The translations under genes were made by a program, and so were the position numbers. A model generated the notes under the pieces. It saw only the letters and a program-made list of their open reading frames with translations. It did no database searches and was not told the origin of the DNA. Shown in pieces: positions 2,113-21,285 of a stretch of 64,000 bases of DNA. The stretch lies in IMG/VR virus record IMGVR_UViG_3300001533_002564, positions 1-64,000 of that record. One strand, 5' to 3'. The stretch comes from a virus. Within the stretch, counting starts at the first letter, position 1, and the number at the start of each line of letters is the position of its first letter.

Positions 2113-2152
2113 GTTGTTTGTATTTACCATTTAAATGAATTATATATTCAAC
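2113..2152 (-). repeat. degenerate terminal CRISPR repeat
   Basis: Keeps GTTG and CAAC ends and a TTTACC.TTAAATGAA core, but has many substitutions and is 40 nt long. It is separated from the first good repeat by 29 nt, almost one spacer length. Degenerate repeats usually mark the end distant from the leader, which supports transcription of the array on the minus strand. Confidence 0.7.
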
Positions 2153-2181
2153 ATTTTCCTTAAGATACGTTTATTATTTAA

Positions 2182-2745
2182 GTTGTAATTACCTTTCAAA
2201 TGAAGACCATACACAACAAATATGATAATGCCGAGGATATTGGCAGGGTTGTAATTACCTTTCAAATGAAGACCATACACAACTCCTTGTATAAAATTTA
2301 TACTCATATCATCGTTGTAATTACCTTTCAAATGAAGACCATACACAACTGCATACCATATTTATCTGATATACCTGTAGTTGTAATTACCTTTCAAATG
2401 AAGACCATACACAACTTTAATAAAGAATATAGTTTCATTTGGACTGTTGTAATTACCTTTCAAATGAAAACCATACACAACGTTGAGAGATGATATTATT
2501 TCAATTATCAAGTTGTAATTACCTTTCAAATGAAGACCATACACAACTTAGTAAGAAAGGTTTTAGCATTAATATCGGTTGTAATTACCTTTCAAATGAA
2601 GACCATACACAACAAGGTTTGTGAATAGTGGTTATTTCATCTAGTTGTAATTACCTTTCAAATGAAGACCATACACAACAAACTAATGCCAAATATATTA
2701 CTTGACCTTGTTGTAATTACCTTTCAAATGAAGACCATACACAAC
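2182..2745 (-). CRISPR. CRISPR array, type VI-B-like repeats, no cas genes in window
   Basis: Nine 36-nt repeats (plus strand GTTGTAATTACC..CATACACAAC) and eight spacers of exactly 30 nt. Repeats start at 2182, 2248, 2314, 2380, 2446, 2512, 2578, 2644 and 2710. All are identical except the one at 2446, with one G-to-A change (GAAAACC for GAAGACC). Read on the minus strand, the repeat (GTTGTGTATGG..GGTAATTACAAC) has the 36-nt length, GTTG/CAAC ends and general layout of type VI-B (Cas13b) repeats, whose spacers are also 30 nt. The degenerate repeat at 2113 places the leader on the right. No Cas13, Csx27/28, Cas1 or Cas2 is present; the nearest nuclease gene is tnpB. The array may use a nuclease of the host or of another part of the phage genome. 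The type assignment is from repeat features only. Confidence 0.95.
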
Positions 2746-3013
2746 CTATATCGTATAATAATCTATTAATCATGTATTTCCTTTTATTTTTATTAAAAAA
2801 ATTTGAAAGATTCAATCCTATTATCGATGTTTCAGTTCAGATTTTAAAACCTAATTGGAATTAAGTCTGCTTCAGCATCTAAGAATTTTATTTTTTTAAA
2901 TCTCGGATGTTACATCACCCACATGATTTTATTTTAAATATTTTCAAAGAACTTTTTATTTTAAATAATATTTTCAAATATAAACTAAATAATTTTAATT
3001 ATCAAATAAATTA
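2746..3013 (-). ncRNA. possible TnpB omega-RNA / IS605-type right end, overlapping the CRISPR leader
   Basis: Non-coding stretch directly after the tnpB stop codon and before the array. In IS605-type elements the omega-RNA comes from the tnpB 3' end and runs into flanking DNA. A hairpin (GGATGT/ACATC) and a compact non-AT-rich block on the minus strand (GATGCTGAAGCAGACTTAAT) would fit a scaffold. No element end could be fixed by eye. The same stretch must also hold the leader of the array. Confidence 0.35.
2940..2957 (-). promoter_or_regulatory. boxA-like element upstream of the CRISPR array
   Basis: Minus strand AAAAAGTTCTTTGAAAATA, matching the core of the boxA-like elements before the tRNA genes. 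It lies about 195 nt upstream of the first repeat. BoxA elements are known in leaders of some bacterial CRISPR arrays, where Nus factors prevent early termination; here it is an inference from sequence. Confidence 0.45.
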
Positions 3014-4324
3014 TCATTTATTTTCAAAATATTTTTCTTTAATATTAATTGCTGCATTTAAATCAGCGTTCATTGTATGACCACATATAACACAAATAAA
3101 TTTTGATTGTGTTTGTCTATTTAATTTATTAGTATGACCACATTTTGAACATTTTTGTGATGTATGTTTAGGGTTAACAGTTACAACATTTTTACCGACA
3201 TATTCTGCTTTATATTGCATTTTAGTCCTCAATGAATATAAACCAACATCACTAAGAACCCGATTTAAATTACTTTTATTATTTGATTTACCTTTTCCAC
3301 TTCTTTTCATCATACCTTTTAAATTCAAATCTTCAAGAATATAAGTATCTACATCTTCTAATTCAATTAATGATTTTGAGATACAATGCTGTATATAATC
3401 ACGTTTTTCAGTTATTTTAAAATAAAGATTATTTATTTTTTTCTTAATTCTTTTATATGATGTAGTTTCCCAGAAATTAATGTCGGTTTTATTTTTTTTA
3501 TGATAATCTCTTTTTCTATTTAATATTTTTGATAATCGGTGTAATTCAGATTTATATTGTTTTAATAATGATATGGAATTTTTATAAATATCAATATTAA
3601 AATGTAATTCATCTGATGTTGTAATTGGTCTATGAACACCGAAATCAATACCAACACTAGTTTTTTTATCTATTGGTTTTTTTGTTTCAATAATTAATTT
3701 ATTTGGGTCATTTACATCACATTGTAATGATATAAAATATTTATCATTTTTTCTAGAAATCGTATATGAATTAATTTTAATAAATTTATTATTATCCCAA
3801 TTTTCAGAAAAAAAATGATTATGACATGATATTTTAATTTTTTTTATTTTAGGTATATCAATTAATCCAAATTTATTATTCAATAATTTTAAATTAAATG
3901 TTTTAGGTTTATTTTCATTATATTGTATTTGTCCTGTAAATGAATGTTTTGATTTTTGATTTTTAAATTTAGGAAATCCACTTCCCATTTTTTTTATATT
4001 AGCAAACGCTTTTTCAATAGCTTTTAAACTATATGTTTTACTTGTTGAGTCAATATTTTTTAAAAACCAAAATTCATCTGTATTTCCCATTTGAGTTAAA
4101 ATTTTACTCATTTCATATCTATTAAAATACAGGTTATTATCTTTCATATATTTATTACGTTCTTTTTTATCAACAATACCTATTTCAGTCATTTTATCTG
4201 AAATATCAATTTGTTGTCTTAAGCAATAATTATAAATAAATCTTGAAGTTCTAAATGAATCATCAAATGATTTAATTTGTTCGGGTGTTGGGTATATTCT
4301 AAACTTAAATGCTTTAGATATCAT
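3014..4324 (-). CDS. tnpB: TnpB-type RNA-guided nuclease (IS605 OrfB family)
   Basis: A 436-residue protein with the TnpB N-terminal start (FKFRIYPTPEQ) and a split RuvC domain. D227 is in SVGIDFGV (RuvC-I), E331 in YILEDLN (RuvC-II) and D421 in NADLNAAINI (RuvC-III). A four-cysteine zinc knuckle (CSKCG at 392-396, CVICG at 411-415) lies between RuvC-II and III. All catalytic residues are intact. TnpB proteins cut DNA guided by omega-RNA and are ancestral to Cas12. No tnpA transposase is visible in the window, so the gene is solitary. Its 3' end points at the CRISPR array, so read-through would run into it. It could be a selfish homing-like nuclease, or could have been recruited to other guides. 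Confidence 0.93.
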   Translation of the reverse strand: MISKAFKFRIYPTPEQIKSFDDSFRTSRFIYNYCLRQQIDISDKMTEIGIVDKKERNKYMKDNNLYFNRYEMSKILTQMGNTDEFWFLKNIDSTSKTYSLKAIEKAFANIKKMGSGFPKFKNQKSKHSFTGQIQYNENKPKTFNLKLLNNKFGLIDIPKIKKIKISCHNHFFSENWDNNKFIKINSYTISRKNDKYFISLQCDVNDPNKLIIETKKPIDKKTSVGIDFGVHRPITTSDELHFNIDIYKNSISLLKQYKSELHRLSKILNRKRDYHKKNKTDINFWETTSYKRIKKKINNLYFKITEKRDYIQHCISKSLIELEDVDTYILEDLNLKGMMKRSGKGKSNNKSNLNRVLSDVGLYSLRTKMQYKAEYVGKNVVTVNPKHTSQKCSKCGHTNKLNRQTQSKFICVICGHTMNADLNAAINIKEKYFENK

Positions 4325-7031: not shown

Positions 7032-10000
7032 TTATCCACATTTACTATTTCCACATCCCATACAAATAAGACATCCTTCTTTGTATTGTAGGTCATTACT
7101 GCCACATACAGGACAAGTGCCTTTACCTTTTTCACCGTCTTTAATATATCTTTTAATGACACGAGTAACACCATTTTTCCAAGTATTAATATAATCTTCT
7201 TTAAAATTTAATGAATCAATTAATTCAAAAACATATACTAATGGCATTTTATGTCTTAATACCCCAGAAATAAATTTAGCATAATTCCAGAATTCGGGAT
7301 TAAATGCGTGGTTTAGTCCAGTAAAAATATGTTTATCTCCTTGTGAATCAATATATTCAATATCATATCGTTTTCTTTTTACTTTAACTATTTTACCATC
7401 AATAAGTTCATCTATTTCAATAATATTTTTTACAACTTCACATTCAGTAATTAATGGAGGTAGTGAACTTAAACCATTTTCAAGACGACCAGTAAAAATT
7501 TCGTATGGATGACCATCTTTTAATCCAACAACAGCAATCCATTTTTCAAGTTTATTTTGAAAACGATGTATTTCTGCTTTTAATCTTTTTCCTCTTTTGG
7601 GTGCATGAACTTCTTCAATTGCCACTTCTTTTTTCTCATTATTAGATATTAGAACACCACTTCTACTACCTTCACGATAAACAGTCATTCCTTTACAACC
7701 AGCACTCCATCCAGTTTCATATACTTGACGAACTAAATCTTCAGTTGCTTCTTCGGGTAAATTAACTGTCACACTAATACTATGGTCAACATGTTTTTGT
7801 ATTCTACCTTGCATTTCAACTTTCTTAACCCAATCAACATCATTTGAAGTAGCTTTATAATAAGGTGATTTTTTTACTATTTCATCAACTTGTTCTTCTG
7901 TCATTGTTTTAACAATATCAACATCATAATCATTTGCTTTTAACCATGTTTTAAAGTTGTTATGGAAGACAAGATATTCTTTCCATGCAATTCCTTCTTC
8001 ATCAACAAAATCTATTTGAATATCTTTTTCTTGTGGATTAATTTTTCTTCTTCTTTTATAAACAGGTAAGAAAACAGGTTCAATTCCTGATGTTGTCTGT
8101 GTCATTAAACTTGCAGTACCTGTAGGTGCTATTGTTAATAATGCAATATTTCTACGACCATATTTAACCATGTCTGCATATAGTTCAGGATTTGCTTCTT
8201 TTATACGTAAAATAAATGGATTATTCTTTTCTCTTTTAGCGTCATAAATTGGAAATGCTCCACGTTCTTTTGCTAATATAACCGATGATTTATATGCATT
8301 TAATTTTAAATTTTCATGTACTTTTTCACTAAAATCATTTACACTATCAGTCCCATATGTAAGACTTAATGCTGCAAGCATGTCACCTTCAGCAGTAACA
8401 CCTAAACCAGTTCTTCTGCCTTCAATTGCTTTTTCTCTGATTTTAGTCCATAAATTAATTTCATATAATTTAATGAATTCATCTTCAGGGTCTAATTTAA
8501 TTTTAGCTAGAATATTATCAATTTTTTCTAATTCTAAATCAATAATATCATCCATATAACGCATAGCAATAATTACATCATTTTTAAATAAATCCCAATC
8601 AAAATAAGAATCAGAAGTAAATGGATTAACAACATATCCGTACAAATTAAGTGCAAGTAATCTACAACTATCATATGGACATAAAGGTATTTCACCACAA
8701 TTGTGCACACTAATTCCATTGCAATCAAATTCATGTGCAATATCAACATTACAATCATAAACATCTTCAACACCTACTAATTTTATTGATTTAATTGAAT
8801 CAGTGAAATATTCTTTATATAAACCACGCTTTAAATTATTTAATACATTATCTAATTTTGTTTGTTTATTAACGTCCTTAAAACCAATACGTTTATTAAA
8901 AACCAATAAATTTTCTTTAGATATTACTAACTCATGTTGTGCTTTTACATTATATTCTTTTTTACCACCATTACCATCAGGTAACATTTTTTTACTGTCT
9001 AATCTCCTATTTTTAAATATTGATGAGACGATACCTAACCTTAGTAACATTCTTTGAATAACTTCCAGATTATTAAGATTAGATGAAGATAGTCTAACAT
9101 TAATACCCTTTTTACTATTATTTAATACTGTACCATCAGCATCTAATATTCCTGAAATAAAACCACGATAAAAATCAGAACTTTGTGATTCAATTGCATA
9201 ACCTAAATTCTTACCGTCAAACAATCCTAAATCATTTGCTATTCTACCTAATGGATTTGATTTAACAGTAATTATTTCATTATTATCGTCACCACTACCA
9301 AGACTATCGTTATAATTCAATGATGTTTTAATTAAATCAACAGCAATTTTTTTCATTGTTGCTCGATTTTCACCCCAATATCTTAAATATGCAGTTTCAT
9401 TTACTAGAGAACCATCACCAACTAATGAACCAATTAACCAACCAATTTTATCATCGTAATTACTATCCCATGAAGATTTTAAATTTTGGTTTTTATTATA
9501 ATTTAAATTAAGTACGTCACCTTCAATCAAATCACCTAACTCAACCCATTCATATGATTTTTTTCCTCGATTTTGTTTAATAACCCTTTTAAACTTATGA
9601 TTATCAGTAGCTTTTATCTTTAAACCACGATTAGTTTCAACTTCATAAACCTTTTTATCTCCAGTATAGAAAAAACCGCCTTTTGATAAATATTGCTCGT
9701 TATCAACCAGTGCAGTAAAATCTTTACCAATTAATTCATTAACTTGTTTCGGTCCTTCATTTGTCATCACCCAAGAATCACTTGTAACACAAGGATTAGT
9801 ACTTGTTGTTTTAAATCCTAAGTCAGCATAACAATCAGGAATACTTTCAGAGATTACTTTATCCCAGAAAAGAATACCGGGTTCGCCTGATTTCCATGCA
9901 TTATGTATTATTTTTTTCCAAAGTTTTGTTGGGTCAATTTCTTTTATGATTTTAGGATTATCGCTATCAATTGGATATTTTTGTTCAAAAGCATACTCAT

Positions 10001-10688
10001 ATTTTGCAGCTTTCATAAATTCATCAGTTAATCTTACTGAAACGTTAGCACCAGTAACTTTACCTTCACTCATTTTTGCATCAATAAAATCTTCAGCATC
10101 AGGATGATTAATTGAAACACTTAACATTAATGCGCCTCTTCGACCATCTTGTGCTACTTCTTTTGTACTATTTGAATATCTTTCCATAAAAGGAACAATT
10201 CCAGTACTTGTTATCGCACTATTTTTTACTGGACTTCCTTTAGGACGAATAAATGACAGGTCTTGTCCTACTCCACCTCGTCTTTTTTGAAGTTGAACCA
10301 TATCTTGATCGAGTTTCATAATTCCACCATAACTATCACTGTCTTTATTATTTCCAATTACAAAACAATTAGATAGTGATATTATTTGAAAATTATTACC
10401 AATACCAGACATCGAACCACCTTGTGGAACAATTCTTTTAAAATTTTTAATTGTTTTATAAATTTCTTTTGCAGATAATGCATTAGGATATTTAGCTTCG
10501 ATTCTCGCAAATTCTTTTGCTAATCTCCTATGCATATTATCTGGGGATAATTCATAATAATTATTATCGTCTTTTAAACAATATTTTTTTATCCAGACAT
10601 CTGTAGCTAATTGGTCGTTATTAAAATAAGTTAATGTTGCTTCTTCAACTTGTTCTTTTGTATAAGTTTTTTTGGTTTTTTCTATCAT
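7032..10688 (-). CDS. nrdJ: class II (adenosylcobalamin-dependent) ribonucleotide reductase with intein
   Basis: A 1218-residue precursor; removal of the 364-residue intein leaves 854. The enzyme reduces ribonucleotides to deoxyribonucleotides for phage DNA synthesis using coenzyme B12. Visible signs are SNCFVIG (redox cysteine region), RRGGVGQDLSFIRP, the radical-cysteine motif NP/CGEI split by the intein, APTGTASL in the substrate-binding barrel, and a C-terminal cysteine cluster (CPVCG, CLICMGCG) typical of NrdJ tails. C664 is both the first residue after the intein and the expected thiyl-radical cysteine, so the enzyme is inactive until splicing. A host-like promoter at 10722-10752 suggests early expression. 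Confidence 0.95.
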   Translation of the reverse strand: MIEKTKKTYTKEQVEEATLTYFNNDQLATDVWIKKYCLKDDNNYYELSPDNMHRRLAKEFARIEAKYPNALSAKEIYKTIKNFKRIVPQGGSMSGIGNNFQIISLSNCFVIGNNKDSDSYGGIMKLDQDMVQLQKRRGGVGQDLSFIRPKGSPVKNSAITSTGIVPFMERYSNSTKEVAQDGRRGALMLSVSINHPDAEDFIDAKMSEGKVTGANVSVRLTDEFMKAAKYEYAFEQKYPIDSDNPKIIKEIDPTKLWKKIIHNAWKSGEPGILFWDKVISESIPDCYADLGFKTTSTNPCVTSDSWVMTNEGPKQVNELIGKDFTALVDNEQYLSKGGFFYTGDKKVYEVETNRGLKIKATDNHKFKRVIKQNRGKKSYEWVELGDLIEGDVLNLNYNKNQNLKSSWDSNYDDKIGWLIGSLVGDGSLVNETAYLRYWGENRATMKKIAVDLIKTSLNYNDSLGSGDDNNEIITVKSNPLGRIANDLGLFDGKNLGYAIESQSSDFYRGFISGILDADGTVLNNSKKGINVRLSSSNLNNLEVIQRMLLRLGIVSSIFKNRRLDSKKMLPDGNGGKKEYNVKAQHELVISKENLLVFNKRIGFKDVNKQTKLDNVLNNLKRGLYKEYFTDSIKSIKLVGVEDVYDCNVDIAHEFDCNGISVHNCGEIPLCPYDSCRLLALNLYGYVVNPFTSDSYFDWDLFKNDVIIAMRYMDDIIDLELEKIDNILAKIKLDPEDEFIKLYEINLWTKIREKAIEGRRTGLGVTAEGDMLAALSLTYGTDSVNDFSEKVHENLKLNAYKSSVILAKERGAFPIYDAKREKNNPFILRIKEANPELYADMVKYGRRNIALLTIAPTGTASLMTQTTSGIEPVFLPVYKRRRKINPQEKDIQIDFVDEEGIAWKEYLVFHNNFKTWLKANDYDVDIVKTMTEEQVDEIVKKSPYYKATSNDVDWVKKVEMQGRIQKHVDHSISVTVNLPEEATEDLVRQVYETGWSAGCKGMTVYREGSRSGVLISNNEKKEVAIEEVHAPKRGKRLKAEIHRFQNKLEKWIAVVGLKDGHPYEIFTGRLENGLSSLPPLITECEVVKNIIEIDELIDGKIVKVKRKRYDIEYIDSQGDKHIFTGLNHAFNPEFWNYAKFISGVLRHKMPLVYVFELIDSLNFKEDYINTWKNGVTRVIKRYIKDGEKGKGTCPVCGSNDLQYKEGCLICMGCGNSKCG
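8700..9791 (-). mobile_element. NrdJ intein with LAGLIDADG endonuclease
   Basis: Residues 300-663 of the precursor. It starts at C300 (CVTSDSWVMTNEG), has a block B-like TDNHKF, two LAGLIDADG helices (IGSLVGDG near 419 and ISGILDADG near 511) and ends with the C-terminal splice motif VYDCNVDIAHEF..SVHN before Cys. All splice residues look intact. Insertion at the active-site cysteine is a known site for ribonucleotide reductase inteins. Confidence 0.93.
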
Positions 10689-20785: not shown

Positions 20786-20920
20786 AAAAAAGGGACTTTC
20801 TTAAAGTAATCATTATCGGTCACGCTCCGAAACGGTCTAAGATAATTCTTTCATAACTTTCCCCATGAAATCCAGTTATGTATGTTTGCAAACTTTCTTT
20901 AAGTTTTATTCGTCCCTTTA
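20786..20920 (-). ncRNA. structured RNA directly downstream of tmRNA
   Basis: Closed by long-range stems GGGAC/GTCCC and CTTAAAG/CTTTAAG, with internal hairpins ATAACT/AGTTAT and ATTATC/GATAAT (the latter enclosing GACCGTTTCGGAGCGTGACC), and ending in a T run. No ORF. It may be the tmRNA terminator region enlarged into a separate RNA. Identity unknown. Confidence 0.5.
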
Positions 20921-20921
20921 G

Positions 20922-21285
20922 TGGAGTTGACGGGATTTGAACCCGTGTCCGCATGGTTGATTAATTAATTTTCTACAAGTTTAGGATAAAATTTTCTAAT
21001 TTTCCAAAAATAGTATGATTTAATTCTTAGTTTTTATTCTGGATTCATTACTTTTCTCATACAAACTCATTTCACCAGAAAGTTTTTGTTGATTTTTTTA
21101 CGACTTCCTATGCTGCAAATGCAAGTTCAACATTCTTTGCAAATACACTTTCTCCTCTCGTAAGAGAAGTCGGAATAGACATTATGTCTTCTGCGTTTAT
21201 TGTTTTGTACTTTTTTTAAGTAAATATTACAACTACTACTTGCTTATTAATCTCTCTACACCATCGTCAAAACCAAGACAACCCC
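20922..21285 (-). ncRNA. ssrA: tmRNA (transfer-messenger RNA)
   Basis: 364 nt. The tRNA-like ends pair GGGGTTG with CAACTCC, followed by discriminator A, and the T arm ACGGG TTCAAAT CCCGT is canonical. The 5' half has the tmRNA-typical GGTTTTGACGATGG. A GCA at tmRNA position 92, the place of the E. coli resume codon, opens a 28-codon tag frame beginning AEDIMSIP and ending KNVELAFAA, then TAG at 21108-21110. A stem CGACTTC/GAAGTCG encloses much of this frame. If the internal GCA at 21138-21140 were the resume codon, the tag would be the usual ten residues, AKNVELAFAA. It rescues stalled ribosomes. Confidence 0.93.

What the first reader, a model, noticed from the sequence alone, without database searches (positions are those of the whole stretch)
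2113..2745. Phage CRISPR mini-array with type VI-B-like geometry and no cas genes
Nine 36-nt repeats and eight spacers all exactly 30 nt, the geometry known for Cas13b arrays. The minus-strand repeat has GTTG..ACAAC ends and a GGTAAT(T)ACAAC 3' end as in VI-B repeats, and the degenerate repeat at the left fits minus-strand transcription. No Cas13b or adaptation genes are present. The phage may lend guides to a host Cas13b against rival phages, or act as decoy. An RNA-targeting array in a phage using another genome's effector would be unusual.
Basis: partly seen in the sequence, partly recalled or inferred. Interest (0 to 1): 0.88.

Follow-up and report, generated by a model that had tools for sequence, protein, structure and literature searches.

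The report
Cas-less phage CRISPR array beside TnpB
Three related viruses of Bacteroidota-type bacteria carry a short CRISPR guide array whose repeats look like those used by the RNA-cutting enzyme Cas13b; none of the three records has a Cas13b gene, and in all three the array sits right behind a TnpB nuclease gene, so the phage either borrows its host's Cas13b or uses TnpB as a home-made effector.

Summary
The array is real: nine 36-nt repeats (eight identical, one with a single change) and eight 30-nt spacers at 2182-2745, plus a degenerate tenth repeat at 2116-2152 on the side away from the leader. The 104-kb virus record holds no detectable Cas13b or Cas1. The 36/30 geometry is not diagnostic, because most Bacteroidota Cas9 arrays sampled here share it. 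Repeat sequence, fold, leader-repeat pairing and direction do point to type VI-B: 25 of 31 bacterial genomes with this repeat signature encode Cas13b, against 5 of 296 Bacteroidota at large. Two more IMG/VR phages carry the same kind of array (repeats 4-5 of 36 bases different, different spacers, no Cas13b). In all three the array lies directly 3' of, and on the same strand as, the only TnpB gene found, with a conserved RNA element between. Best reading (about 0.45): crRNAs meant for a host Cas13b. Strong rival (about 0.35): a new TnpB-based type V-like system in which a split omegaRNA pairs with the repeat. No protospacer, and no host with a matching repeat, was found. New variant of a known kind.

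The parts
2116..2152 (-). degenerate leader-distal (terminal) repeat, in the 66-nt register
   Evidence: two sister arrays (L004, L051) have a truncated repeat at the same end
2182..2745 (-). CRISPR array: nine 36-nt repeats, eight 30-nt spacers; crRNA strand inferred to be minus
   Evidence: repeat compared with bacterial arrays
2801..2811 (-). anti-repeat in the leader (ATCTTTCAAAT), pairs 11 nt with ATTTGAAAGGT of the repeat
   Evidence: equivalent CCTTTCA(A) at -32 in L004/L051
2746..3013 (-). leader / non-coding RNA region between TnpB stop codon and array
2905..2920 (-). conserved hairpin GGGTGATGTAACATCC (GGGTGRTGTRACATCC in all three phages), candidate part of the TnpB omegaRNA
   Evidence: not in 296 Bacteroidota genomes; preceded by TTCTTTGA.AAT, it occurs in viral contigs only in the two sister loci
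2975..3005 (-). Bacteroidota-type promoter TTG-N20-TATATTTG just after the TnpB stop codon, reading into the array
   Evidence: only match in 2.7 kb, 0.26 expected in shuffles
3014..4324 (-). TnpB (436 aa), RuvC D/E/D residues and zinc ribbon present
   Evidence: NF040570 E=1.6e-71, Pfam Cas12f1-like_TNB, OrfB_IS605, translation; only TnpB found in the record

Best explanation
It is a cas-less CRISPR array of the type VI-B kind that a lineage of T4-like Bacteroidota phages has kept next to a TnpB gene. It is transcribed on the minus strand, leader to array. The leader pairs with the first repeat, so the useful products are spacer-repeat crRNAs. In the infected cell a host Cas13b would load these crRNAs. 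That would turn the host's RNA-targeting enzyme against other transcripts (rival phages or plasmids) and at the same time fill Cas13b with guides harmless to this phage. New spacers would come from the host's Cas1-Cas2. Shown here: array, repeat family, direction signals, leader-repeat pairing, absence of cas13b from three viral records, spacer turnover between sister phages. Inferred: a host with a compatible Cas13b, crRNA production, and target identity.
For: A 22-position VI-B repeat signature that this repeat and L004's repeat satisfy hit 32 bacterial loci, all in Bacteroidota or relatives, mostly with 66-nt period. 24 of the 31 genomes carry Cas13b by profile, plus one more found at the array, against 5 of 296 sampled Bacteroidota. 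None of 27 arrays beside Cas9 fits the signature. The nearest bacterial repeat, Sphingobacterium hungaricum beside Cas13b, has 30/36 identity. The two-stem repeat fold occurs in 16/16 VI-B repeats, 5/16 type II repeats and all three phage repeats. In all three phages the leader out-competes the first repeat's own fold (52-69% of its bases pair with the leader, shuffle p 0.047, 0.17, 0.07), as in 8 of 10 bacterial VI-B arrays here and as shown experimentally for VI-B (PMC13187072); such blocking suits spacer-repeat crRNAs. The degenerate repeat lies opposite the leader, and F. columnare VI-B arrays are read leader to array (PMC8092290). Sister phages L004 and L051 share the leader (91%) but no spacers, so the array turns over.
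Against: No bacterial genome with the phage repeat was found: 0 exact matches in 84,980 species and 0 of 399 genomes of one Flavobacteriaceae-type family at up to 3 mismatches. This repeat's own fold is weak (-4.0 kcal/mol, z -0.2), weaker than cellular VI-B repeats. No protospacer was found in phages or plasmids or in the three phage records. The model does not explain why TnpB is linked in all three phages. The signature was drafted with this repeat in view, and VI-B and II-C repeats of Bacteroidota overlap in sequence.
Confidence: 0.45

Rival explanations
1. TnpB is the effector. The omegaRNA that follows tnpB has lost its own 3' end. Its terminal hairpin is completed by the CRISPR repeat, whose 3' half (UUGAAAGG-UAAUYACAAC) pairs with the CCUUUCAA stretch of the leader. 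The leader RNA thus acts as a tracrRNA, each repeat-spacer unit as a crRNA, and the spacers guide TnpB to DNA: a new, phage-borne type V-like system.
For: All three cas-less arrays of this repeat type in 2.9 million viral contigs lie directly 3' of, and on the same strand as, a TnpB, the only TnpB found in each record. Other viral and bacterial TnpBs at like identity have no such array beside them. RuvC residues are intact. These TnpBs are far from transposon TnpB (IS200_TnpB 173-262 bits against 381-632 in three phage controls). The TnpB-array spacer is more conserved than the gene (91% against 80%). A hairpin plus AATTTAA..TTGTGG sits 12 nt after the stop codon, as in Lak-phage TnpB (9 nt). 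CAACAAGAG directly before the anti-repeat resembles the CAAGAAG block before omegaRNA terminal hairpins. About 50 independent TnpB-CRISPR associations are reported (PMC12669027), two predicted in landfill viruses (PMC12607003).
Against: A covariance model of omegaRNA 3' ends finds nothing at the phage leaders, though it also finds only about a third of unseen relatives. Sequence likeness to omegaRNAs is not significant alone (p about 0.1, and 0.46 for the window). The repeat stays 86-89% identical between phages whose TnpBs share only about 30%, which is odd for an effector-repeat pair. VI-B leaders show the same pairing without TnpB.
Confidence: 0.35
2. RNA decoy: the repeats saturate host Cas13b (or another Cas protein) and spacer content is irrelevant, like the RNA anti-CRISPRs made from single repeats.
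For: Phage repeat mimics inhibit many CRISPR types (PMC10651486); no spacer target was found.
Against: A decoy needs one repeat, not eight different spacers of exactly 30 nt that differ completely between sister phages. The cited survey found solitary repeats for every type except type VI.
Confidence: 0.1
3. Relic: an array picked up from a host and no longer used.
For: The window's repeat folds weakly and the end repeat is decayed.
Against: Eight identical repeats, a consensus promoter, and retention with TnpB and leader in phages whose capsid proteins share 53% and whose terminases share 36% identity.
Confidence: 0.1

Closest known systems
Type VI-B CRISPR-Cas arrays (Cas13b; Bergeyella, Riemerella, Sphingobacterium, Flavobacterium)
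   Same: 36-nt GTTG..CAAC two-stem repeat, 30-nt spacers, leader that pairs with repeat 1, leader-to-array transcription, no own cas1/cas2 needed
   Different: no cas13b, csx27 or csx28 found beside it; on a phage; eroded inner stem; TnpB where cas13b would stand
Virus-borne cas-less mini-CRISPR arrays (archaeal SPV1/SPV2, PMC6858448; huge phages, PMC7162821)
   Same: array and leader without cas genes, spacer turnover between sister viruses, proposed use of host Cas proteins
   Different: those described there are DNA-targeting or unassigned types; here eight spacers, VI-B-like repeats, TnpB linkage, no spacer target found
TnpB-derived type V variants (V-U, Cas12f)
   Same: TnpB-family nuclease, RNA element with an anti-repeat between gene and array, array on the same strand
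   Different: repeat and leader look like VI-B; no test of a tracrRNA or DNA target; protein scores as TnpB, far below the Cas12f2 and C2c8 cut-offs
RNA anti-CRISPRs (solitary repeat units, PMC10651486)
   Same: phage-encoded CRISPR repeats without cas genes
   Different: full array with spacers and leader; type VI was the one type not found in that survey

Membership tests
Type VI-B CRISPR-Cas system | Cas13b effector gene at the locus | tested here: not met
   no PADLOC Cas13b hit in the three viral records; all three are linear records, possibly fragments
Type VI-B CRISPR array (array only) | repeat sequence signature of VI-B | tested here: met
   window and L004 repeats fit all 22 fixed positions; genomes with the signature carry Cas13b in 25/31; 0/27 type II arrays fit. 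L051's repeat misses two of the fixed positions.
Type VI-B CRISPR array (array only) | two-stem repeat hairpin | tested here: inconclusive
   predicted for all three phage repeats, but the window's is no more stable than shuffles
Type VI-B CRISPR array (array only) | about 30-nt spacers and 36-nt repeats | tested here: met
   not discriminating, since II-C arrays share it
Type VI-B CRISPR array (array only) | leader pairs with first repeat | tested here: inconclusive
   pairing in all three phages, shuffle p 0.05-0.17
Virus-borne mini-array using host Cas | host carries the same repeat and a cas effector | tested here: inconclusive
   no matching host found in 84,980 species or 399 family members; host unknown
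TnpB-derived type V (V-U-like) system | TnpB/Cas12-family nuclease with intact RuvC next to the array | tested here: met
   3 of 3 phages
TnpB-derived type V (V-U-like) system | tracrRNA/omegaRNA scaffold joined to the repeat | tested here: inconclusive
   anti-repeat and omega-like blocks visible; covariance model negative
TnpB-derived type V (V-U-like) system | spacers match DNA next to a TAM/PAM | tested here: inconclusive
   no protospacer found
Type II-C array | Cas9 and tracrRNA; II-C type repeat | tested here: not met
   no Cas9 among leading family hits; window repeat closer to VI-B than to the II arrays sampled, though some II-C repeats share the 3' half

The most novel reading that the evidence does not exclude
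The locus is a phage-borne, two-part CRISPR system in which TnpB is the effector. The omegaRNA was split so that its 3' terminal hairpin is formed between the leader and each CRISPR repeat, while the repeats keep a VI-B-like form so that the host's Cas1-Cas2 (and perhaps host Cas13b) can still use them.
Probability: 0.35. Interest if true: 0.85.

Novelty: new variant of a known kind. Interest (0 to 1): 0.64.

Why it matters
Cas-less viral arrays are known, but I found no report of one with type VI repeats, and a survey of viral solitary repeats found all types except type VI. If a host Cas13b uses it, a phage is programming the host's RNA-cutting, dormancy-inducing defence. If TnpB uses it, it is a snapshot of how a transposon nuclease becomes a CRISPR effector, caught in a phage with its omegaRNA half-split into tracrRNA and crRNA. 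The two readings predict different RNA partners and can be told apart with one pull-down.

Tried and rejected
Exact repeat scans of viral and genome collections found nothing. The one-locus hits L005-L007 of a looser pattern were not followed up. Spacers gave no significant match in phages (170 records, all E of about 2 or worse), plasmids, the own record or the sister phages. Spacer open-frame bias towards the sense strand was absent. Type II-C was considered because some II-C repeats end in ATTTGAAAGCAAATCACAAC; dropped because no Cas9 was seen, the window repeat scores closer to VI-B, and no II array fits the signature. Rfam has no family for the leader RNA. A covariance model from 14 omegaRNA 3' ends did not hit the phage leaders; its sensitivity on unseen relatives was low, so this is not decisive. 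TnpB phylogeny neither supports nor rejects one clade of array-linked TnpBs (AU p 0.20). Host search in one family was negative.

Full report
OBSERVATION. The array is present as described. Nine 36-nt repeats start at 2182 and recur every 66 nt to 2745; eight are identical, one has a single change, and all eight spacers are 30 nt. A degenerate tenth repeat stands in register at 2116-2152. The window is bases 1-64000 of a 104,188-bp IMG/VR virus record. Structural genes are T4-like, and the best isolate match of the major capsid protein is Flavobacterium phage immuto at 34%, so a Bacteroidota host is likely but not proven.

NO CAS13B. A Cas13b profile finds nothing in the record, nor does a Cas1 profile. 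The leading PADLOC and NCBIfam hits of 67 ORFs contain only one CRISPR-like protein, the TnpB at 3014-4324 on the minus strand. The record is linear and may be a fragment.

WHAT THE REPEAT IS LIKE. Geometry alone does not decide: most of the type II arrays next to Cas9 sampled in Bacteroidota also have 36-nt repeats and 30-nt spacers. Sequence does help. I scanned 84,980 species with a 22-position signature drafted from recalled VI-B repeats and this one, and got 32 loci, all Bacteroidota or relatives, most with 66-nt period. Of 31 genomes, 24 have Cas13b by profile and one more has it at the array, against 5 of 296 in an even sample of the phylum. None of 27 type II arrays fits the signature. 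The nearest bacterial repeat differs at 6 of 36 bases and lies beside Cas13b in Sphingobacterium hungaricum. All three phage repeats fold into the two-stem form seen in 16/16 VI-B and 5/16 type II repeats, but the window's fold is weak. Caveat: the signature was drafted with this repeat in view, and a few II-C repeats share the 3' half.

TWO SISTER LOCI. The same signature hits one other viral contig, L004 (187 kb); a search with its TnpB found L051 (70-kb record), and a relaxed signature found only these two. Repeats differ from the window's at 4 and 5 of 36 bases; spacers are 30 nt and unrelated; the end repeat is truncated at the same side; no Cas13b and no Cas1. L004 and L051 come from close relatives, the window's phage from a distant one (36% in the terminase, 53% in the capsid protein).

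TNPB IS ALWAYS THERE. In all three, the array lies 112-270 nt downstream of a TnpB gene on the same strand, and it is the only TnpB found in each record. TnpBs of equal distance in other viruses and bacteria have no such array. The window TnpB shares about 30% identity with the other two and cannot be placed (AU p 0.20). The array-linked TnpBs score 173-262 bits with the transposon TnpB model, against 381-632 for three phage controls. RuvC residues are intact.

THE RNA BETWEEN. Between L004 and L051 the spacer region is 91% identical, the gene 80%. All three share TTCTTTGA.AAT followed by the hairpin GGGTGRTGTRACATCC; this combination occurs nowhere else in the viral collection. In the window a Bacteroidota-type promoter lies between the TnpB stop codon and this element (3005-2975, minus); in L004 and L051 it lies before tnpB. 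Each leader carries CYTTTCA(A), which pairs with TTGAAAGG of the repeat, and 52-69% of the first repeat's bases pair with the leader. Bacterial VI-B leaders behave alike, as shown experimentally for Porphyromonas gingivalis (PMC13187072). The same leaders also resemble TnpB omegaRNAs: the hairpin and AATTTAA..TTGTGG follow the stop codon as in Lak phages, and CAACAAGAG precedes the anti-repeat where array-less omegaRNAs have CAAGAAG before their last hairpin. This likeness is suggestive only: shuffles give p about 0.1 for L004/L051 and nothing for the window, and a covariance model of omegaRNA ends misses the leaders, though it also misses about two thirds of unseen true relatives.

MECHANISM. 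Two readings remain. (1) Host Cas13b takes phage crRNAs. This fits repeat, leader, direction and precedent (virus-borne arrays, PMC6858448, PMC7162821; VI-B arrays using Cas1 in trans, PMC8092290). It does not explain TnpB, and no host with this repeat was found. (2) TnpB takes the guides through a split omegaRNA. This fits the linkage and the many reported TnpB-array unions (PMC12669027; two predicted in landfill viruses, PMC12607003), but the repeat is more conserved than TnpB, which is unexpected for an effector and its repeat. I put 0.45 on the first, 0.35 on the second, and the rest on decoy or relic. No spacer target was found.

NOVELTY. A survey of viral solitary repeats found all CRISPR types except type VI (PMC10651486), and I found no report of a cas-less VI-B-like phage array or of one fixed beside TnpB (the paper library is incomplete). 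I rate it a new variant of a known kind.

Noticed in passing
window 7032-10688 (-): B12-dependent ribonucleotide reductase large subunit carrying a LAGLIDADG intein.
   Followed up: no
window 20919-21285 (-): phage-encoded tmRNA with tag AEDIMSIPTSLTRGESVFAKNVELAFAA, amid 20 or more tRNA genes.
   Followed up: no
window and L002/L003, many places: numerous HNH, GIY-YIG and group I intron-type homing endonucleases.
   Followed up: no
L051 3430-4900, L050, G001: repeated small genes sharing a start like MKKIIRLTESDLTRLVKRIINE, several copies near the array in both sister phages.
   Followed up: no
L154-L183: Bacteroidota type II arrays mostly have 36-nt repeats and 30-nt spacers, so this geometry cannot be used to call VI-B.
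   Followed up: yes
L022, L016, L038 arrays: bacterial VI-B arrays with some repeat-to-repeat gaps of about 146 nt between normal 30-nt spacers; unexplained here.
   Followed up: no
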